Below, piece by piece: positions 7,297 through 63,263 of a DNA stretch of 64,000 nt; position 1 is the first letter of the stretch, and each line of letters begins with the position of its first letter. Origin of the DNA: Elusimicrobiaceae bacterium (GTDB lineage Bacteria; Elusimicrobiota; Elusimicrobia; Elusimicrobiales; Elusimicrobiaceae); assembly GCA_016282685.1 (NCBI GenBank), contig JAEELM010000025.1, positions 62,001 to 126,000 on the forward strand, in the 5' to 3' direction. The translations under genes and the position numbers were made by a program. Below the pieces are notes generated by a model. The model saw only the letters and a program-made list of their open reading frames with translations, was not told the DNA's origin and made no database searches.

Positions 7297-10200
7297 TTGC
7301 GGGCCTCCTCTAATAGCTTGCTGGCTTCACTTTTTCGTGCACGCAATAGAGAGAAAAAGTTGTCCCGGCGGCAAATAGTACTGTATGGACAATATTGACA
7401 TAAATCCGAGGGAAAAAGGAAAAAGACCCCTTGCTTAATCAAATCGGTAATTTGAGTAAAAAAGCGGCAAGCATGTTCCCGAACTGCCTGGAATGAATCA
7501 GCGGAAAGCGTACGCTTGTCATATTTGGGTTGTATGGATAATAAACACGAACCGGCAGACGTATAATCCTTTAATTCTTCTAAATGCAAGGCGATAAATA
7601 CATACAAAAAAGGTTGAAAAATTAAATGTGTAAATAAATCCGCCGCCAAATCTTTTGTTCCTTTACGAGAAGATTTATAATCTACTACAAAAAAAGTTTT
7701 CTCTTTTTCATTTATATCCAAACGATCTATAATTCCACGCAAGCGAATAGGCAATTCCATGGTTGGAGCCAAAGAAACCGGTTGTTCAAATTTACTGGGA
7801 ACAAAAGAACCTAATTGTTGTAAATCTTCTTGCACAAATGCGGTCAGTTTTTGGCGAATATTCTCCACAATCAGTTCCCATACTACGGGATAGATACCAA
7901 AAGCTTTATAAGAATTTGATTTGTAGTGTTTTTCAAATACCCGATTTAAATATTCATTCACTCCTGATGGAAATAAGGAATGTGTTAGATGTTTTTTATA
8001 AAGCATATCATAGAATTCGTGCAAAATTTCATGATAGGCATTCCCCTTTTGGTCTGCTGCTAATTCTTGGCGACTCAAAGGAGTATCAGGCTCCGACAAG
8101 CCAAGACCTTTATTAAAAAAATACTTCAAAGGACAAGAAGCCAATTCCTGTAAAGCAGAAGGAGAGAACCCTTTTCTATTTTGGGAATCAAATAATTCCT
8201 TCCCGCTCCTAATTATGCCGTCATAAGGGCCCAATTCCCCCCGATTATGCAATGCCGTTGCAGCCGTTAAGGAATTTTCTTTTTCTTGGTCAAGCAAGTC
8301 AGCTTGCCTCAACAGCTCGTTGGTGTTAGAAGAATCCAACACACATGCATAAGACATTTCTTTGGAAGTCCAAAGAGAAAGATCCGTATTTGCCAATTGT
8401 TCTTGCAAAGCCCCGCCTACTCTTATTGTGCCCTGCGATTGCAAATCAAGCTGACAGGCACGGGCTAATTCTGCTAAGTATACAGAAGGAACCGCTTCTT
8501 TTCCATCTTCTCCCCGCCGGTAATACGTAACATATATTTTTTCTTTAGCCGCAGTAAGAGCGACATAAAAAAGTAATTTCTCTTCGTCAAAACGTTCCAG
8601 ACTTTGATTAATCCAGTATCCCAATACATCTCGCAAAATATAACGATAGTAATCTTTTAAAATAGGATCTTCAGAAATTACCTGAGGAAAAGATCGGTCA
8701 TTAAGACCCAAAATAAAAACAAACTTACGTTGAATTCCACGGGCACGTAAGGCATCTGTAAATAGAACTCCGGTAGGAATACTTTCCGCTTCATTAAACG
8801 TTAGACTCGCTAAGGCATCCTCTATTTCCCGTAAGAATTCTCCCCGTTGACTAAAAGGACGCAACACGCCATATGTTTTCATTTTTTCAACCGTCTGGCA
8901 AATCTGTTGAAAAATTTCTTCATCTTTTCCTTGAAATGCTGTAGGGTCTACCAATTCTTGCAACAGCTGTAAAGCAAGAGATACACTTTCCTCCCATTTG
9001 GCAGGAGAAGCTAATTGTTCCAGTCGGGCTGCCAATTGCTCCAACCAATTTAGAAACGAAAGGCTTTCTTCCTCCTTTCTCGGTAACAAATCCCTCCATT
9101 GCGATAGGTCTCTGCTTACCAAACTCCGACGGATTAATTCGCGCCAGTTTCGCTTAGAAGAATGTTTAAAATAAGGAGAAGAAATCAATTGCAACATAGC
9201 ATTACGGGAAAAACCGTCCTTGCTCAAATGAAATAATCCCTTGCAAAACACTCCTAATGCATAATGAGACAATGAATAAGAAAACGAAGCGTTCAACGGG
9301 ATTTTATTAGTTTCAAAAACACGACGTATTTCTTCTTGATAAGGAGCTGATGTGCGGGCAATGATGGCAATTTCATCAAAATTACATTTTCCTTGCTCCA
9401 CTAATCGTAGAATTTCTTTTGCTGCAAAAAATACTTCTCCTTGCATATCTGCCGCGTTGACCAATTGTACATTTTCACAAGGCGTGCTCTTTTCTGACGA
9501 AAACAAACAAGCGGCACTTTCTTTCAATGCACCGGAAGTTTCCTCCGGTAAAGCTGTCGCTCCGGGAATGCTTAACCAGTTAGTTTCGAAGAACTTTCTT
9601 GCAAACTGGTAGGCAGGATGGCGATTATAAGCGGCAAACACCGTCAAGGGATATTTGCTTTTGATACGATCAAAAAATTCTAATTGACGACCTGAAAGTT
9701 CGTAGAATCCATACCAAATAATTTGTTGAAATTCTTTTAAATAAGTCCCCTTTTCCGCTTCCTTTAAAGCATGTTCAAAAGCATCTTGATAAGAACGGTA
9801 ACCCGGTATTTTGTTTTCCTGTTCCATATATCGGCGGTAAACACGATTGAGCCATAAAAGGCGATCTCCTTCTTGTTCCAATACACTATCGGGTAATGAA
9901 AGCGTATGCTCTTGTAATACGTCCGGATCTACCAAACTATCAGACATATCCCGCAAAGCACTCTTGACAGCTTGTACGAAACCATTAGAAACAGGATAAC
10001 GGTCCAGCCCAGGTTCGGTTAAAATTTCTTTTAAGAGAAAATCACGCAAATGATCTTGTGGGAAAAGGGGTAATTGGCTTTCTTCTTGTGCATCCAATTG
10101 GGAAATAAGCCCTCCCACTGTTATAAAATGAATGTTGGCCAATGCTCCCATTTCTCTGGCCAGACGAGTTCGCAGCTCCTGTGCCATGAAAGAAGAAGCG

Positions 10201-10301
10201 CATATCACCAACCATTTTTCCAACGGGTGATGCCGATTCTTACAAGTAAAGGCCAAGAATTCCTTTTCTAATGCGGGATAATTACCGTAAAATAACTGCA
10301 T
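7293..10301 (-). CDS. addB: AddB-like subunit, PD-(D/E)XK nuclease with Fe-S cluster
   Basis: About 1002 residues from the ATG at 10301. The frame is open 36 codons further upstream, but that part overlaps the divergent promoter region and has no homolog-like content, so I prefer 10301 (MQLFYGNYPALE). The C-terminal nuclease has a YHEILHEFYD helix, RGIIDRLD and VVDYKSS. A likely 4Fe-4S site is formed by C723 (ASCPLKYFF) and C968, C971 and C977 (CQYCPYSTIC), as in AddB and Cas4 (family knowledge). A classical Walker A is not visible at the N-terminus, unlike Firmicutes AddB; Bacteroidetes-type partners also diverge there. It is the first gene of the unit leading to addA, ybaB and two oxidoreductase-type genes. 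Confidence 0.87.
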   Translation of the reverse strand: MQLFYGNYPALEKEFLAFTCKNRHHPLEKWLVICASSFMAQELRTRLAREMGALANIHFITVGGLISQLDAQEESQLPLFPQDHLRDFLLKEILTEPGLDRYPVSNGFVQAVKSALRDMSDSLVDPDVLQEHTLSLPDSVLEQEGDRLLWLNRVYRRYMEQENKIPGYRSYQDAFEHALKEAEKGTYLKEFQQIIWYGFYELSGRQLEFFDRIKSKYPLTVFAAYNRHPAYQFARKFFETNWLSIPGATALPEETSGALKESAACLFSSEKSTPCENVQLVNAADMQGEVFFAAKEILRLVEQGKCNFDEIAIIARTSAPYQEEIRRVFETNKIPLNASFSYSLSHYALGVFCKGLFHLSKDGFSRNAMLQLISSPYFKHSSKRNWRELIRRSLVSRDLSQWRDLLPRKEEESLSFLNWLEQLAARLEQLASPAKWEESVSLALQLLQELVDPTAFQGKDEEIFQQICQTVEKMKTYGVLRPFSQRGEFLREIEDALASLTFNEAESIPTGVLFTDALRARGIQRKFVFILGLNDRSFPQVISEDPILKDYYRYILRDVLGYWINQSLERFDEEKLLFYVALTAAKEKIYVTYYRRGEDGKEAVPSVYLAELARACQLDLQSQGTIRVGGALQEQLANTDLSLWTSKEMSYACVLDSSNTNELLRQADLLDQEKENSLTAATALHNRGELGPYDGIIRSGKELFDSQNRKGFSPSALQELASCPLKYFFNKGLGLSEPDTPLSRQELAADQKGNAYHEILHEFYDMLYKKHLTHSLFPSGVNEYLNRVFEKHYKSNSYKAFGIYPVVWELIVENIRQKLTAFVQEDLQQLGSFVPSKFEQPVSLAPTMELPIRLRGIIDRLDINEKEKTFFVVDYKSSRKGTKDLAADLFTHLIFQPFLYVFIALHLEELKDYTSAGSCLLSIQPKYDKRTLSADSFQAVREHACRFFTQITDLIKQGVFFLFPSDLCQYCPYSTICRRDNFFSLLRARKSEASKLLEEARK

Positions 10302-10372
10302 AGGAAAACCTATAAATAGTAAAATAGGAGATACAAAGGTTATTATTACATTTTCAAAGAAACGAATCAAAC

Positions 10373-55587: not shown

Positions 55588-55615
55588 CCCAGCCGTTAAG
55601 GCTGGGTTTTGTTTT
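55588..55615 (+). terminator. intrinsic terminator of the bamA-lpxI unit
   Basis: CCCAGCC-GTTAA-GGCTGGG, a 7-bp stem, is followed by a T-rich run. Confidence 0.93.
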
Positions 55616-56520: not shown

Positions 56521-57162
56521 ATGGAACGCGCCAAATTGATTGACCATACTTTATTGAAACCCATTGCTACAAAAAGTGATATAGCTCATTTGTGCCAAGA
56601 GGCACGTACGCATCATTTTTGCAGCGTATGTGTCAATCCGTTTTGGGTATCTTTTGCCAAAGAACAATTGGCGGGTTCGGATGTAAAAGTTTGCACAGTA
56701 ATTGGTTTTCCCCTCGGGGCCAACACTACTGCGGTAAAGGTTTTTGAAACAGAAAACGCTATTAAAAACGGAGCCGACGAAATTGACATGGTTATCAATA
56801 ACGGGGCTTTGAAAGCTCAGGATTACCAAACTGTGTTAGAAGATATCCGCTCCGTACGCCAAGCCTGCCTGGGACATGTGCTAAAAGTGATTATTGAAAC
56901 TTCGCAATTGTCTAACGAAGAAAAAGTAAAAGCCTGTGAACTTTCTGCTCAGGCAGATGCTGATTTTGTAAAAACATCTACGGGATTTATCGGAACAGGA
57001 GCCACGGCAGAAGATGTTGCTTTGATGCGCAAATCTATTCCTATTCACATGGAAGTAAAAGCCTCAGGAGGGGTGCGCACTCGGGAAGACTTTGATAAAA
57101 TGGTTGCAGCAGGAGCCACCCGTATCGGGGCTAGCAGCGGGGTTAAGATTGTAGAAGGGTAA
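56521..57162 (+). CDS. deoC: deoxyribose-phosphate aldolase
   Basis: 213 residues. The Schiff-base lysine K151 is in VKTSTGF, the second lysine K180 is in [10 protein letters not shown], and D90 is in EIDMVIN. It splits deoxyribose 5-phosphate into acetaldehyde and glyceraldehyde 3-phosphate during deoxynucleoside use. An AGGAG site precedes the ATG. Confidence 0.96.
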
Positions 57163-57170
57163 GTTGCTTA

Positions 57171-60164
57171 ATGATTACAAATTGGGACCTAGTCTCACAC
57201 ATGGATGAAGAAACGGGAAACATGGTGTTTTCCCTAGTTATAGACGGTACCGAGAATGATGCCCGTTTAATTGCTAAAAAATTAAAGGGCTTTGCTAAAG
57301 AACCGGGACCGGCAGATCCTCCTTTTGTCTATGCGTTTGCATTACCTGATAACTTGGATGAAAGCATCCAAGAAAAGATTCGTACCGCTACTCGCGAAGG
57401 TGTAGATGCCGCCAACAAAGTAAGCCAGTTTGTACCGGGTGGAGTATTGGGAGACCCTTTATTTAACTCTGATCCTTCCGATGCCGGCAATATGGAAACT
57501 TTCCTTGCCAATGCTGCGCTCCCCTTTAACCAATCGGCCGGTGGCTTGCAATCTATCAATTTGGATGAAGGAGAAGGACTATCCTTAAAAACCGATCCGA
57601 AAAAGGACCCTCCGAAAGAGGAAGAAAAAAAAGATGCTGTCTCGTTACCAGAAATGGTTTTGCCTGCGCATGATCCTGTAGCACCCACTTTCACTTCTTA
57701 CATCCCAGCAACAGAGATCATTGATGAACATCAACGCACAAGAACGATAGACGATTTGCCAGAAATGGTTTTACCTGCGCATCAAGAAGGAGAAAAGACA
57801 TTTACTTCTTTCATTCCGGCTACCCAAGTGGGAGATACTTTCGGTGCTGATTTGCCGAAGGAAAAAGAGGCTGAAGAGAAAGAGGAAGAAGCTGTTTTAG
57901 ACGAAAATAAAATTGCCCCTACTTCTGCGGAAGAAGTGTTTGCCGATCCGTATGACAAGTCAGTCTCTTCCCCGAAAAGCGAATCTTCCGCCAACAAAAA
58001 TACGCAAAATGCCGCAACCTCGCCTTCCCAATCATCTGAAGCGGCCGAAGTAGCCATGCCACTAGATGACAAAGATATGTTGATTAAAGACATGGAGGGA
58101 ACTGTCTTAAATCACATGCCTATTGAAGATATTTTTGCGGCAGAAACCAAGTATGATATGTTCGTAGATGTGGAAGACAAAGAAAAATCGAAAGAAACGC
58201 AGCAACAACGAGAAGATAAATTACAGCAAGCTACCGTTGAATCTACCAAAAGTGGTTGGGAAACCTCCATTTTTACCAAAAATTTAAAAGAACAAACCGA
58301 TTTTATTGATATAAATGAAGTAAAAACCCCTGCTACCGCGCAAGAGGAGCAGGTTTCTCCTTCCGCCGATAATACTTCGCAGAAGAAGAACGATACAGTT
58401 GCGGATGCGCAACCCCAATCAGCTGACGTTTCCGTTGAAAGCGCCCTTAAACAAGAAGAGAAAGACCCTGCTTTACACACGGTCCGGTCTTCTACGCCTA
58501 TCAGTGAAGATTTGCCAGCTATTACATTGCGGATGACTCCGTATCAAAATGATTTAAAGGAACCGCAGCCTACAGAGGAAACTCCTGCTCAAGACACAAA
58601 AGAAGTTGCCCCTGTTGCAGAGGAAAGAAAAACGGACGTTTCTTCCCCTGAAAAACCGAAGGAAACTCCTAAAAAGGGTCCTTCTGCCAAAGCTGCACCT
58701 AAGTTACGAAGGAAAGAATCTATGGACGAAAATACACAAAAAACTTTTTTTAGAATCAAACTGAAGAAACCTTCAGCCAAATCCCCGGTTCCGCCCAGCG
58801 CGCCGAAACCGGCTGCACCTAATTCCAGCAACACCATACCGCCAAAACCTATAGTTCCGCCGGTAAAAGCACCTGTTACCTCTCAGGCGAACAAATCCAG
58901 CAAAGCAGGGGAAAAAACAAAAACCATAGATCACTCTATTCAAGTCTCTCTTTCGGAACTCAAGAAACACAATTGGCCATTAGAGGTGCCTTTGGTTCCC
59001 ACGTATACGCTCAGCAATATGGTAATGTCCGTAAACCGTTTTGCCCATGCCACAGCTATTTCTGTAATTGAATCTCCCGGCAAATTGTATAACCCTCTGG
59101 TTTTGCATGGCGCCACCGGCACAGGCAAAAGCCATTTTCTCAACGCCATGGCGTATGCTTTTAGCCAAAAATTCGGGCAAGCCAACATCTTTATGACTAA
59201 CGGGGTACGTTTGTCACGAGGAATTCAACGCTATATTACCGAAGGAAATATTGAGAAATTCGATCAATTTATGTCCACGGTTAAAGTGTTGCTAATCGAC
59301 GATATTCACTTGTTAGCCATCAACGAACAGAACCGTGCTTATATTTCCAAATTATTAAACACATTCCTCAAAGAACAAAAACAAATCGTTATTACTTCCA
59401 AATATCCACCGGAAAGTTTGGAAAAATTGGAAGAACTAATTAAATTCCGATTGGATTCCGGTTGGATTAGTGAATTAAAATCTCCTACGGGACAAGTCCA
59501 ATTTAAAATTGCGAAGAAAATGTTAGTGGACAATCACGTGGATTTGACGGACAATCAAATAACAGAATTTTTCAGCGCAGATAATATGACGTTGGGAACC
59601 GTACAACGCAGTGTCCGACGCATGAAAGTGCTGGAAAATTTGCTTCCTCAGAGCCTTAGCCCGCAACAACGCTCGGCCGCTGCCATTTTGGAACGTTTAT
59701 TGGCACCACAAGGGGAAGATGAAAGAAGCCGAATATTGACAACGGACCCAGAAGAAATAAGCGCCATTACCCCTATCGGAAATGGCGAATGGGGCCGTAT
59801 CGGATTCTTCTACCCGGCCAATTGCTCCGATAAGATGAATTGGATGGTTTATTCCCTGCAAGAACGTGCCCGAGAACTGGGAATTGAAGGAGGCCCGGAA
59901 ATTGTTGTCCGTTCTTCTTACGCAACGGAAAATATTATTTCCTCTGCGTTTAAAATTGCCAACCTTTGCGATAACAAGAAACTCAAAGGAGCGGTTATTT
60001 TGGGGCCTAGCCACCAAGAATGTGACCTCTCTATAAGAGAGAACTTCTATGATATTTTGACTCACATGTTAGAAGTTATGCTTATCCGCTGCGGTATTAT
60101 CAATTTTGAAAGTCTCCGACAGCCTAGCATGTACGTGAAAGTTTTGGCAGAACTGTTGAGGTAA
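57171..60164 (+). CDS. large protein with a DnaA/Hda-like AAA+ ATPase domain
   Basis: 997 residues. Residues 1-100 form a small folded domain of unknown type. Residues 130-600 are acidic, Pro/Lys/Ser-rich and probably disordered, with a tandem repeat (LPEMVLPAH at 159-167 and 196-204, each followed by FTS(Y/F)IPAT). Residues 610-830 are a DnaA-type AAA+ domain with Walker A GATGTGKS (647-654), Walker B LLIDDIH (D710, D711) and a ...TSKYPPESL sensor region, resembling DnaA domain III or Hda but without the DnaA DNA-binding domain. The last 150 residues are an unrecognised alpha/beta domain. Two lipoprotein genes follow at once. Function unknown; replication control is only one option. Confidence 0.75.
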   Translation: MITNWDLVSHMDEETGNMVFSLVIDGTENDARLIAKKLKGFAKEPGPADPPFVYAFALPDNLDESIQEKIRTATREGVDAANKVSQFVPGGVLGDPLFNSDPSDAGNMETFLANAALPFNQSAGGLQSINLDEGEGLSLKTDPKKDPPKEEEKKDAVSLPEMVLPAHDPVAPTFTSYIPATEIIDEHQRTRTIDDLPEMVLPAHQEGEKTFTSFIPATQVGDTFGADLPKEKEAEEKEEEAVLDENKIAPTSAEEVFADPYDKSVSSPKSESSANKNTQNAATSPSQSSEAAEVAMPLDDKDMLIKDMEGTVLNHMPIEDIFAAETKYDMFVDVEDKEKSKETQQQREDKLQQATVESTKSGWETSIFTKNLKEQTDFIDINEVKTPATAQEEQVSPSADNTSQKKNDTVADAQPQSADVSVESALKQEEKDPALHTVRSSTPISEDLPAITLRMTPYQNDLKEPQPTEETPAQDTKEVAPVAEERKTDVSSPEKPKETPKKGPSAKAAPKLRRKESMDENTQKTFFRIKLKKPSAKSPVPPSAPKPAAPNSSNTIPPKPIVPPVKAPVTSQANKSSKAGEKTKTIDHSIQVSLSELKKHNWPLEVPLVPTYTLSNMVMSVNRFAHATAISVIESPGKLYNPLVLHGATGTGKSHFLNAMAYAFSQKFGQANIFMTNGVRLSRGIQRYITEGNIEKFDQFMSTVKVLLIDDIHLLAINEQNRAYISKLLNTFLKEQKQIVITSKYPPESLEKLEELIKFRLDSGWISELKSPTGQVQFKIAKKMLVDNHVDLTDNQITEFFSADNMTLGTVQRSVRRMKVLENLLPQSLSPQQRSAAAILERLLAPQGEDERSRILTTDPEEISAITPIGNGEWGRIGFFYPANCSDKMNWMVYSLQERARELGIEGGPEIVVRSSYATENIISSAFKIANLCDNKKLKGAVILGPSHQECDLSIRENFYDILTHMLEVMLIRCGIINFESLRQPSMYVKVLAELLR
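57648..57782 (+). repeat. coding tandem repeat in the DnaA-like gene
   Basis: Bases 57648-57671 and 57759-57782 match at 23 of 24 positions, 111 bases apart, and encode PEMVLPAH twice. The following 14 residues are also related (FTSYIPAT and FTSFIPAT). Confidence 0.85.
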
Positions 60165-60166
60165 AC

Positions 60167-60616
60167 ATGAAAAAACTGTTTCCGTTGTTAGTAGCCATTT
60201 TAGCCTTAGGGGCTTGCTCCCACTCGTTAAAAAGCGCCGTAAAGGAAGGGGCCTTAGCTCCGGCTTTTAATGACACACTGCTTACCGGAGACTATCTATG
60301 GGTACGTGGATTTGGAGCAGCCAATCCCAACCATACTTCCGATTCTCAACGAAGAATTATGAGCCGTGAAGCTGCTATTGCCCATGCTTATCAACGAGCC
60401 AGCGAAGTGTTGTACGGCGCTCAAGTAGAAGCCAATGTACAAGTAGTGGATGCTGTTTCTTATGACAGCTCCATTGACTCTTCCACCCAAGGGACCATTC
60501 AAAACATGGAACTTGTATCTACCGAATATCTGGAAGACGGCGGATGTAGCGTTATTATGCGTCTAAACCGTTCTTACTTGAAAAAAGCAGGCATTGATCC
60601 GGAGATGAAAAAATGA
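60167..60616 (+). CDS. LPP20-like lipoprotein
   Basis: 149 residues. Lipobox LGAC gives lipidated C17. The mature part (WVRGFGAANPN, SREAAIAHAYQRASEVLYG) resembles the LPP20 family, in which a repeated SHS2-like fold binds other envelope proteins (family knowledge). The start is 3 bases after the ATPase stop, with GAGG inside the end of that gene. It overlaps the next lipoprotein (ATGA). Confidence 0.78.
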   Translation: MKKLFPLLVAILALGACSHSLKSAVKEGALAPAFNDTLLTGDYLWVRGFGAANPNHTSDSQRRIMSREAAIAHAYQRASEVLYGAQVEANVQVVDAVSYDSSIDSSTQGTIQNMELVSTEYLEDGGCSVIMRLNRSYLKKAGIDPEMKK

Positions 60617-61722
60617 AGAAAATTTCACCTATATTTCTTGCCGTTATTCTGTTTCTCAGTGCATGTGGCACGTTCCATATCGGCCCGAAAGGAGAAGGAG
60701 AATTTGTAGAAGCAGAATCACTTGTTCCTTATGATGAAAACAATATTCGTCAAATGAAAAAAGATGGTATCCTGGCAGCTCAAAAAAGCGCAGTGGAAAA
60801 AGTAGCCGGAGTTTTTATTTCTTCTGCCACTACCGTTGACCAAGCACAATTAGTAGAAGATAAAATTACATCTAAAACTGCCGGTTTTATCCGCAAATCT
60901 CACGTTACTAAAAGTTATCGCAAAGGGGATGAATTCTACACGAAAATTAAAGCCATGGTATTGGTAAAAGATATCGGGGAAATCATTAAGCAATCAGATG
61001 AAGATGCTTTCGCTAAAAAAACCAATATTGTGGTGGCTTCTCGGGAGCAAATCGGCGAGAATTTATCTTTAACGCAAGATTGCAAACAAGCTATCTACCG
61101 GGCGCTGAAAAACCAACCCTATGCTTTGGTAAACGGAGACAATTTAAGCAAAAACAATTTGGACAATCCCAATCCTGCCATTGATAAAGCCCGCACGGAA
61201 GGAGCACGGTTTGTGATTATGGCTGATGTAGAAGCAAACCCTTTAACAGCCTTGCCAGGGGGGATGCCCTCTCCTTTCAAATCGTATAGGGCACGCGCCA
61301 ATATACGCACTTACTCTACCAACAATTATGCCATTGTGGCCGAAGGAGCCCAACAACAAAGCGGGCTGGACCCGTTAGATGAAATCGCCGCACAAAAATC
61401 TATCTCCACTGCCTGCGAAGCCGCCGCCAAGCAATTGATAGAGCCTATCAATGATGCAATTAACTCTGCAAAAGTTTTTTCTGTTACTGTTAAGAACGTT
61501 AATACCATTGAACGGTTAAAACAATTGCAGGAAGTATTGCGCACGCTACGAGAGATTGAAGATTTTAACTTAGTCCGCTACGCTAATTCAGCGGCACAGT
61601 TTGATGTATCAGCCAATATTTCCACTCCGGAGGAACTAACGGCTAAAATCATCCGTAAATATAATATTTATTTTACGGTACTGAACATTACCCCAACAAC
61701 AATTATCCTCAATTTTAATTAG
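60613..61722 (+). CDS. FlgT/LPP20-related lipoprotein
   Basis: 369 residues. Lipobox LSAC gives C18. Residues 35-125 (AQKSAVEKVAGVFISSATTV ... GDEFYTKIKAMVLV) resemble the N-terminal domain of FlgT and LPP20 relatives; the rest includes a second alpha/beta domain (KARTEGARFVIMADVEAN) and a C-terminal FDVSANISTPEELTAKI. No flagellar genes are in the window, so a flagellar role is not implied. It probably forms a pair with the preceding lipoprotein. Confidence 0.7.
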   Translation: MKKISPIFLAVILFLSACGTFHIGPKGEGEFVEAESLVPYDENNIRQMKKDGILAAQKSAVEKVAGVFISSATTVDQAQLVEDKITSKTAGFIRKSHVTKSYRKGDEFYTKIKAMVLVKDIGEIIKQSDEDAFAKKTNIVVASREQIGENLSLTQDCKQAIYRALKNQPYALVNGDNLSKNNLDNPNPAIDKARTEGARFVIMADVEANPLTALPGGMPSPFKSYRARANIRTYSTNNYAIVAEGAQQQSGLDPLDEIAAQKSISTACEAAAKQLIEPINDAINSAKVFSVTVKNVNTIERLKQLQEVLRTLREIEDFNLVRYANSAAQFDVSANISTPEELTAKIIRKYNIYFTVLNITPTTIILNFN

Positions 61723-61724
61723 TT

Positions 61725-63263
61725 ATGTTAGCCAATATCTGTACGGGAGCCATTAAAGGGATCGAGGGATTTGCGGTATCGGTAGAAGTAGATATCGCGC
61801 CGGGAATGCCTACCCTTGCCGTAGTAGGGCTTCCTGATGCAGAAGTAAAAGAAAGCAAAGACCGCGTGATAGCCGCTATTCGAAATAGCGGTTTCGATTT
61901 TCCGTTAAAACGTATTACCGTTAACTTGAGCCCCGCCGAATTACGAAAAAGCGGTACTCATTTTGATTTACCCATTGCACTAGGAATTTTGGCCGCCAGC
62001 GAACAGCTTTCTCCTTCCGCGGTTGGTAAAATAAAAGATCTTCTCGTTATGGGAGAAGTCGCGTTAGACGGATCTCTCAGGCCCTGTGCCGGAGTGTTAC
62101 CCATGTTAATTTCTTGCCAGAAATTGGGCAAAACTGCCGTCATTCCTCCTGCCAACGTTTTGGAAGGGCATGTATCCGGCTCACCCTTTATTTCACCTCA
62201 TACCTTAAAAGAACTGGCTGATTATTTAGAAGAAAAAATTTCACTAGAGAACGTAACCGTTTCCTATTTGCCGCCGGAAGAGGAAGAAATAGCCAGCGAA
62301 TTGGATTTTTCAGATGTAAAAGGGCAGGCCCTAGCCAAACGTGCATTAGAAATTGCTGCCGCCGGAGGACATAATGTGCTCATGATTGGTCTGCCTGGTA
62401 CGGGCAAAAGCATGCTAGCCAAACGTTTTGCCAGCATTCTACCCCCTCTTACGCAAGAAGAAGCCCTGGAAATTACCAAAATTTATTCTATTTGCAACTT
62501 ACTAGGGAAAAGCAAACTTTTTACACGCCGTCCCTTCCGTGATCCCCACCATACCATTTCAGATGTGGCTCTAATCGGGGGAGGAACAACCCCCCGCCCG
62601 GGAGAAGTGTCATTGGCACATAATGGCGTGTTATTCCTTGATGAATTTGCGGAATTTTCCCGTTCTTCTTTAGAGGTTTTACGCGAACCTTTGGAAAACG
62701 GGCAAGTAACCATTTCACGGGCTAAAGAAACCGTTTCTTATCCGGCAAGATTTACGCTATTGGCTGCTATGAATCCGTGCCCTTGCGGAAATTTGGGGAA
62801 TCCCTTAAAACCTTGCACTTGTACTCCCATGCAAGTAAATCGTTATAAATCACGCATCTCCGGCCCGCTCTTGGACCGTATCGATCTAACTGTTACTTTG
62901 AATCCCGTTAAATATACCGATTGGAACAAACCCAGCGAAGGGGAAACCTCTGCTCAAATCCGGGAACGAGTACTCAAGGCGCGTGCCATTCAAAAAGAAC
63001 GTTTTGCGCATTCCTCTACAACGGCCAATGCCTTTATGACACCTAAGGAAATCAAAACTTTTTGTCCCCTACCTCCGGAGGCTGATACCGTTTTGGAAGC
63101 TGCCATGCGCAAGTTCGGTTTAAGTGCACGCAGTTTGGATAAAATTTTAAAAACAGCACGGACTATTGCTGATTTAGATGGGGCTAAAAACATTGAAACC
63201 AAACATTTAATTGAAGTCATGCAATACCGCCCGTTAGACCGTAAAGGAGTGGCAGATTTATGA
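61725..63263 (+). CDS. comM: YifB/ComM family Mg-chelatase-like AAA+ ATPase
   Basis: 512 residues. An N-terminal Lon-like domain (MPTLAVVGLPDAEVKESKDRV) is followed by the AAA+ core with Walker A GLPGTGKS (222-229) and Walker B VLFLDEF (D306). Four Cys (C352, C354, C364, C366) form a probable zinc site, and a C-terminal helical domain with LSARSLDKILKTARTIADL follows. ComM drives branch migration of incoming DNA in natural transformation. It overlaps dprA by ATGA, so the two competence-linked genes form one unit. Confidence 0.95.
   Translation: MLANICTGAIKGIEGFAVSVEVDIAPGMPTLAVVGLPDAEVKESKDRVIAAIRNSGFDFPLKRITVNLSPAELRKSGTHFDLPIALGILAASEQLSPSAVGKIKDLLVMGEVALDGSLRPCAGVLPMLISCQKLGKTAVIPPANVLEGHVSGSPFISPHTLKELADYLEEKISLENVTVSYLPPEEEEIASELDFSDVKGQALAKRALEIAAAGGHNVLMIGLPGTGKSMLAKRFASILPPLTQEEALEITKIYSICNLLGKSKLFTRRPFRDPHHTISDVALIGGGTTPRPGEVSLAHNGVLFLDEFAEFSRSSLEVLREPLENGQVTISRAKETVSYPARFTLLAAMNPCPCGNLGNPLKPCTCTPMQVNRYKSRISGPLLDRIDLTVTLNPVKYTDWNKPSEGETSAQIRERVLKARAIQKERFAHSSTTANAFMTPKEIKTFCPLPPEADTVLEAAMRKFGLSARSLDKILKTARTIADLDGAKNIETKHLIEVMQYRPLDRKGVADL

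What the first reader, a model, noticed from the sequence alone, without database searches (positions are those of the whole stretch)
57171..60164. 997-residue DnaA/Hda-like ATPase with long disordered front and unknown end domains
An intact DnaA-type AAA+ module (Walker A 647-654, DD at 710-711) lacks the DnaA DNA-binding domain. It sits behind about 500 acidic/proline-rich residues and before an unrecognised 150-residue alpha/beta domain. It is followed immediately by two lipoprotein genes. I know no described family with this layout; it could link replication or localisation to the envelope.
Basis: partly seen in the sequence, partly recalled or inferred. Interest (0 to 1): 0.62.

Follow-up and report, generated by a model that had tools for sequence, protein, structure and literature searches.

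The report
Repurposed DnaA paralogue in pilus-linked operon
This bacterium, an uncultured gut or rumen relative of Elusimicrobium, carries a second, rebuilt copy of the ATP-binding core of the DNA-replication starter DnaA, which has lost its DNA-binding end, is placed between two new domains, and in most of the phylum travels with a signalling kinase, a partner protein and often a pilus-retraction motor, so it has probably been recruited to a job other than starting replication.

Summary
In detail: window 57171-60164 encodes 997 aa, with a DnaA-type AAA+ domain between a ~500-residue disordered linker and an unrecognised alpha/beta domain, followed by two lipoprotein genes. The module is not fully 'intact': Walker A/B are kept, but sensor I Asp, one box VII Arg and sensor II Arg are gone. 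It is not an orphan. The C-terminal domain occurs, nearly always once, in 245 of 341 Elusimicrobiota genomes; a true DnaA was present too in every genome checked. A tree puts all sampled copies on one side of a branch against real DnaA (99/92): one old paralogue. Deep families keep every DnaA ATPase residue and even pass NCBI's DnaA cut-off, although DNA-binding domain IV is missing. The end domains also occur together, without AAA+, in a neighbouring protein (U). Outside the window's own family the usual order is pilT - U - this gene - histidine kinase, often with overlapping ends. The lipoproteins are a lineage-specific neighbour; U, kinase and that pilT are not beside the gene in the window's family. 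Best reading: a phylum-specific, DnaA-derived nucleotide switch/scaffold, probably for type IV pilus control. Ancestry and architecture are shown; function is inferred from gene order only.

The parts
57171..60164 (+). 997-aa DnaA-paralogue gene
   Evidence: ORF and translation; orthologues phylum-wide
57171..57425 (+). N-terminal small alpha/beta domain (residues 1-85), also found at the start of protein U in some families
   Evidence: A3 alignment, model pTM 0.58 with pLDDT above 80 over residues 1-80; same domain on U in f7, f8, f29
57426..58961 (+). disordered acidic/proline-rich linker (residues 86-597), length differs greatly between relatives
   Evidence: composition, per-block conservation
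58065..58178 (+). conserved linear motif inside the linker (residues 299-336, (D/E)KDMLIKDMExxxL...), in 28 of 28 relatives scanned in the same family
58992..59636 (+). DnaA-type AAA+ domain (residues 608-822)
   Evidence: Bac_DnaA 5.7e-30; DnaA structures 8bv3, 1l8q; tree
59109..59132 (+). Walker A GATGTGKS (residues 647-654)
59298..59303 (+). Walker B DD (residues 710-711)
59688..60161 (+). C-terminal Rossmann-like domain (residues 840-997), homologous to the C-terminal domain of U
   Evidence: AF2 model pTM 0.76, four strands alternating with helices; hhalign to U 95.8%, E 7.6e-9
60167..60616 (+). Lip1, small lipoprotein with weak FlgT N-terminal similarity
   Evidence: lipobox LGAC; FlgT_N E 0.0024, below cut-off; adjacent in 29 of 35 loci of the own family
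60613..61722 (+). Lip2, lipoprotein; a sister-family homologue has weak FlgT N-terminal similarity
   Evidence: lipobox LSAC; FlgT_N 6e-4 for the homologue in L040, below cut-off; conserved downstream
56521..57162 (+). deoC, upstream neighbour, 8 bp before the gene
   Evidence: deoC upstream in 50 of 81 loci
61725..63263 (+). comM, downstream neighbour
   Evidence: comM downstream in 54 of 81 loci

Best explanation
The gene is an old paralogue of dnaA, specific as far as I could see to Elusimicrobiota. It lacks DnaA's domain I and its DNA-binding domain IV, and carries its AAA+ core between an N-terminal and a C-terminal domain. The same two end domains form a partner protein, U, without AAA+. 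SHOWN by sequence: the ancestry, the architecture, the shared domains and the recurrent order pilT - U - this gene - histidine kinase. INFERRED: U and this protein assemble through their shared end domains, the AAA+ core works as an ATP/ADP-controlled switch or scaffold rather than an origin-melting filament, the kinase feeds a signal into it, and the original output is type IV pilus action. In the window's family the pilT, the kinase and U are not beside the gene (U was not found anywhere in the 11 genomes searched), and the ATP-sensing residues have decayed. There I expect a nucleotide-binding scaffold with little ATPase cycling; its partners there are unknown and may involve the two lipoproteins only indirectly.
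For: One origin: 24 copies on one side of a branch against 32 DnaA, 99/92. A separate true dnaA in every genome checked. Domain IV and domain I models not hit. End domains shared with U: hhalign 95.8%, E 7.6e-9; direct BLAST E 9.9e-5; the U profile also finds this protein's C-domain in two genomes. N-domain on U instead of, or as well as, on this protein in f8, f7 and f29, a domain exchange that suggests joint action. Operon: kinase adjacent in 18 of 20 sister-family loci and in 9 other families; 4-base overlaps U/gene and gene/kinase. PilT upstream in 15 loci of 9 families; all three tested copies pass the NCBIfam PilT/PilU cut-off. All 52 PilT-less genomes of the phylum lack the gene. Loss of sensor I, R281 and mostly sensor II in the class clade versus full retention in the deep clade.
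Against: No experiment. The PilT-less genomes all belong to one family (f21), so that correlation may be one event. 25 genomes of f21 have PilT but no clear copy. The particular PilT beside the gene was not found in the sampled genomes of the window's and sister families, although the gene stays, so that motor is not required. No phospho-acceptor Asp of a receiver is recognisable in the C-domain, so the kinase link is by operon only. Neither end-domain model has a convincing structural relative.
Confidence: 0.4

Rival explanations
1. Replication regulator or loader: a free DnaA AAA+ that, like Hda, acts on DnaA, or that loads the helicase like DnaC/DnaI/IstB.
For: The domain is derived from DnaA and Hda, DnaI and IstB models score. 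Deep-clade copies keep all the ATPase and inter-subunit residues.
Against: Hda score 46 against a cut-off of 194.8. By eye, the Q at the place of a possible clamp-binding motif before the AAA+ (IQVSL, residues 588-592) is E in most relatives. No replication gene was recognised next to it in the loci read; Elusimicrobia have the helicase operator DciA (PMC5109545). The class clade, window included, has lost sensor I and mostly sensor II residues.
Confidence: 0.15
2. DNA-uptake factor: an AAA+ protein that handles incoming single strands between the pilus motor (PilT) and ComM/DprA.
For: comM is downstream in 54 of 81 loci and dprA in 39. PilT lies upstream in 9 families. The DnaA core can bind single-stranded DNA (general knowledge).
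Against: In the other classes examined the gene is beside PilT and/or the kinase without comM/dprA within the distances scored. Published Endomicrobium genomes keep comEC, comM, dprA and recA, yet lack a complete type IV pilus DNA-uptake system (PMC8809381); the family I take to be Endomicrobiaceae (f21) lacks this gene apart from one marginal hit. The DnaA single-strand residues V211/R245 are not conserved, though they vary in real DnaA too.
Confidence: 0.15
3. Envelope or polarity scaffold together with the lipoproteins.
For: Lip2 follows in 32 of 35 loci of the own family and 16 of 20 of the sister family; intergenic gaps are 2 bp or overlapping in the window. The long disordered linker suits a tether.
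Against: Lip1/Lip2 were not found beside the gene in the other classes. A cytoplasmic AAA+ protein and exported lipoproteins cannot touch directly.
Confidence: 0.12
4. A pseudo-enzyme remnant: conserved structure, ATPase function lost, no link to pili any more in the window's lineage.
For: Sensor I, R281 and sensor II residues lost; U, kinase and pilT not beside the gene in the own family.
Against: AAA+ blocks from residue 601 to 780 stay 71-91% identical between members of the own family, and Walker A Lys and Walker B DD are invariant in the f1 and f2 copies aligned, so it seems under selection to bind nucleotide.
Confidence: 0.12

Closest known systems
DnaA, chromosomal replication initiator (TIGR00362, Pfam Bac_DnaA)
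   Same: AAA+ domain III; a deep-clade copy is 52-55% identical to bona fide DnaA over about 240 residues, and ten deep-clade genomes' copies pass the TIGR00362 cut-off
   Different: No domain I, no DNA-binding domain IV, two new end domains, a separate real dnaA in the genome; ATP-sensing residues lost in the class clade that includes the window
Hda / HdaA, DnaA regulatory inactivator
   Same: A DnaA AAA+ module without domain IV
   Different: Score far below cut-off, no conserved clamp motif seen, four times longer, different neighbours
DnaC / DnaI / IstB helicase-loader type ATPases
   Same: Related AAA+ core, weak hits
   Different: No helicase-binding domain recognised; much closer to DnaA; phylum has DciA
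PilT/PilU type IV pilus ATPase operons (TIGR01420)
   Same: pilT is the usual upstream gene in 9 families; kinase downstream
   Different: No such operon with a DnaA-type AAA+ came up in the papers searched; AAA+ here is DnaA-type, not the NtrC-type of PilR (recalled, not tested)
FlgT/GNA1162/CsgG-type lipoproteins
   Same: Lip2-like, GNA1162-like and CsgG-like genes follow in the sister family (CsgG by eye, no library hit at the threshold used)
   Different: Neighbours only; not found beside the gene in other classes

Membership tests
DnaA initiator | AAA+ domain III with Walker A/B | tested here: met
   Bac_DnaA 105 bits; K653, DD 710-711
DnaA initiator | Sensor I Asp (D269), box VII Arg (R281, R285), sensor II Arg (R334) | tested here: not met
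   Window has K, L, R, G at these sites; deep-clade copies have all four, 11 of 11
DnaA initiator | C-terminal DNA-binding domain IV | tested here: not met
   No DnaA C-terminal model hit in window or deep copies
DnaA initiator | N-terminal domain I | tested here: not met
   No DnaA N-terminal model hit; N-domain model shows a different order of elements
DnaA initiator | Is the genome's only dnaA | tested here: not met
   Separate full-length DnaA at G000:C16, 439.7 bits
Hda | Family score above curated cut-off | tested here: not met
   46.3 against 194.8
Hda | Clamp-binding motif before the AAA+ | tested here: inconclusive
   IQVSL at residues 588-592, Q mostly E in relatives, read from the alignment; no binding test possible
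Helicase loader (DnaC/DnaI/IstB) | Best match among AAA+ families | tested here: not met
   DnaA models score far higher
Type IV pilus control protein | Genetic linkage to a pilus motor | tested here: met
   PilT upstream in 15 loci, 9 families, but not in the own or sister family
Type IV pilus control protein | Effect on pili or twitching | not testable with these tools
   Needs a mutant

The most novel reading that the evidence does not exclude
A replication initiator's AAA+ core was captured between the two domains of a two-domain partner protein and turned into an ATP-dependent controller of type IV pili, with its own histidine kinase, early in the history of a whole phylum; in gut lineages it then decayed into a nucleotide-locked scaffold.
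Probability: 0.3. Interest if true: 0.75.

Novelty: new variant of a known kind. Interest (0 to 1): 0.55.

Why it matters
DnaA AAA+ domains are known as initiators or as regulators of initiation; an old, nearly phylum-wide paralogue that lost DNA binding and sits in a kinase/pilus operon would be a new use of that machine. It also warns annotators: in ten deep-branching genomes the protein passes NCBI's DnaA cut-off, so it would be named dnaA although it has no domain IV with which to bind an origin. The deep clade (all ATPase residues kept) and the class clade (residues lost) give a natural comparison for testing what DnaA-type ATP switching is for outside replication.

Tried and rejected
PDB sequence profiles of the N-domain, C-domain and U: nothing below E 0.07. 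Foldseek of the C-domain model: only generic Rossmann-like folds (Argonaute, lumazine synthase, B12-binding, LivJ), none of the listed ones above TM 0.51; of the N-domain: nothing below E 0.035. First hhalign of C-domain against U with the narrow set failed and became strong only with deep families. U with the narrow profile and with the deeper one: not found in the own family, the deep one with positive controls. Resemblance of the linker motif DMLIKDMEGT..MP to U's N-terminus DEILSDLNGLLNKMP: hhalign 3.4%, E 0.013 over 13 columns, not accepted. Plasmid and viral collections: only real DnaA for the AAA+ part, nothing for the C-domain. Papers: no description found of this architecture or of a DnaA-type AAA+ with PilT.

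Full report
WHAT IS THERE. The ORF 57171-60164 (+) encodes 997 residues. It lies 8 bp after deoC, 2 bp before a small lipoprotein gene and two genes before comM. A terminator-like hairpin at 55588-55606, one of 20 pattern matches against 10.5 expected in shuffles, precedes tpiA, so tpiA-deoC-gene-Lip1-Lip2-comM may be one unit. The genome is Elusimicrobiaceae-like from gut or rumen, judged from named relatives.

DOMAINS. Bac_DnaA is the best model (5.7e-30, residues 610-766); DnaA N- and C-terminal domain models are not hit. PDB matches are DnaA AAA+ domains. The linker 101-590 is disordered by composition and poorly conserved except for residues 299-336, where (D/E)KDMLIKDMExxxL occurs in all 28 scanned relatives of the family. 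AlphaFold gives a four-stranded, helix-alternating C-domain (pTM 0.76) and a small alpha/beta N-domain (pTM 0.58, residues 1-80 above pLDDT 80); neither has a convincing structural relative in the PDB.

DISTRIBUTION. Of 61 genomes searched first, every one has a match. With a C-domain profile from the class, 206 of 341 genomes of the phylum match; with a deeper profile 245 of 341, nearly always one copy. At least one genome scored as absent does have the AAA+ gene beside pilT and U (G172).

ANCESTRY. All 26 genomes tested for DnaA have a real DnaA as well. A tree of 56 AAA+ domains puts 24 copies of this gene on one side of a branch against 32 DnaA (99/92). Two groups appear: a deep group close to DnaA and a long-branched class clade with the window's gene. 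The deep group keeps sensor I Asp, both box VII Arg and sensor II Arg in 11 of 11; in the class clade sample sensor I Asp and R281 are gone in all 14, sensor II Arg in 13 of 14. The window has K, L, R and G at D269, R281, R285 and R334. DnaA's sensor I Asp has been reported as needed for its tight nucleotide binding (title of a reference cited in PMC5835720), so weaker binding is a prediction, not a result. In ten deep-branching genomes the copy exceeds the TIGR00362 cut-off and would be named DnaA.

A PARTNER WITH THE SAME ENDS. In the sister family the gene before it, U, has a conserved N-terminal segment, a long linker and a C-terminal domain, and is adjacent in 20 of 20 loci. Profile comparison of the two C-domains gives 95.8%, E 7.6e-9 over 113 columns; a direct BLAST hit links deep U and deep copies. 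In f8, f7 and f29, U begins with the N-domain of this gene, and in f29 two U-type proteins and the AAA+ protein all begin with it. So the layout N-domain, linker, C-domain exists with and without AAA+.

GENE ORDER. Over 81 loci: kinase adjacent downstream in 32, U adjacent upstream in 29, PilT upstream in 15 (9 families), Lip2 in 52, comM in 54. The 81 loci are those I fetched, 55 of them from the own and sister families, and some end at contig edges; they are not a random sample. U counts are lower bounds, since diverged U escaped BLAST in some loci where a reading by eye shows it (L234, L235). Many junctions overlap by 4 bases. The PilT beside the gene is a distinct copy: 52-62% identical among these loci against 36-49% for the other PilT-family copies, and undetected in the sampled own and sister family genomes. 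The genes of the sister family's downstream string include GNA1162-like and CsgG-like lipoproteins.

PILUS LINK, HOW STRONG. All 52 genomes without a PilT-family ATPase lack this gene, but all are in f21, so this may be one event. Published Endomicrobium genomes keep comEC, comM, dprA and recA while lacking a complete type IV pilus uptake system (PMC8809381), which, if f21 is that family, speaks for a pilus link over a DNA-processing one. This is gene-order evidence, not function.

MECHANISM. My best estimate is a nucleotide-controlled switch or scaffold that pairs with U through shared end domains and is coupled to a kinase, with type IV pili as the original output. In the window's family the partners are gone from the locus and the ATP-sensing residues have decayed, so a nucleotide-bound scaffold is more likely than a cycling ATPase.

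LIMITS. Nothing outside the phylum was searched by profile; outside it only plasmid and viral collections were searched, with single sequences. The single genome-contig scan used a close query and returned only Elusimicrobiota-type records, plus several labelled 'uncultured bacterium'. Family codes are unnamed. Functional claims are untested.

Noticed in passing
L141, L143 and others in classes outside the window's class: In ten deep-branching genomes the paralogue scores 351-370 bits against TIGR00362 (cut-off 343.9), so automatic annotation would call it DnaA although domain IV is absent.
   Followed up: yes
L229:9995-14869: A 1624-residue version of the protein in genus g15 of the same family; where the extra length lies was not aligned.
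   Followed up: no
L139:10341-11024 and 8983-10329: N-domain and AAA+/C-domain are on two separate neighbouring ORFs in f28; real gene split or sequencing error not tested.
   Followed up: no
L072:8001-11208: The gene is split into two overlapping ORFs in this record, probably a frameshift or assembly error.
   Followed up: no
L216 (G203:C1:3598326-3599626): The true dnaA of this genome is matched in two pieces in different frames, probably a frameshift in the assembly.
   Followed up: no
L168, G061: PilT followed by a U-like protein with no DnaA-type paralogue detected: the partner can exist without it.
   Followed up: partly
window 57687-57827: Two linker repeats around TFTS(F/Y)IPAT (at residues 173 and 210); among the relatives scanned only L048 has this motif, once.
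   Followed up: partly
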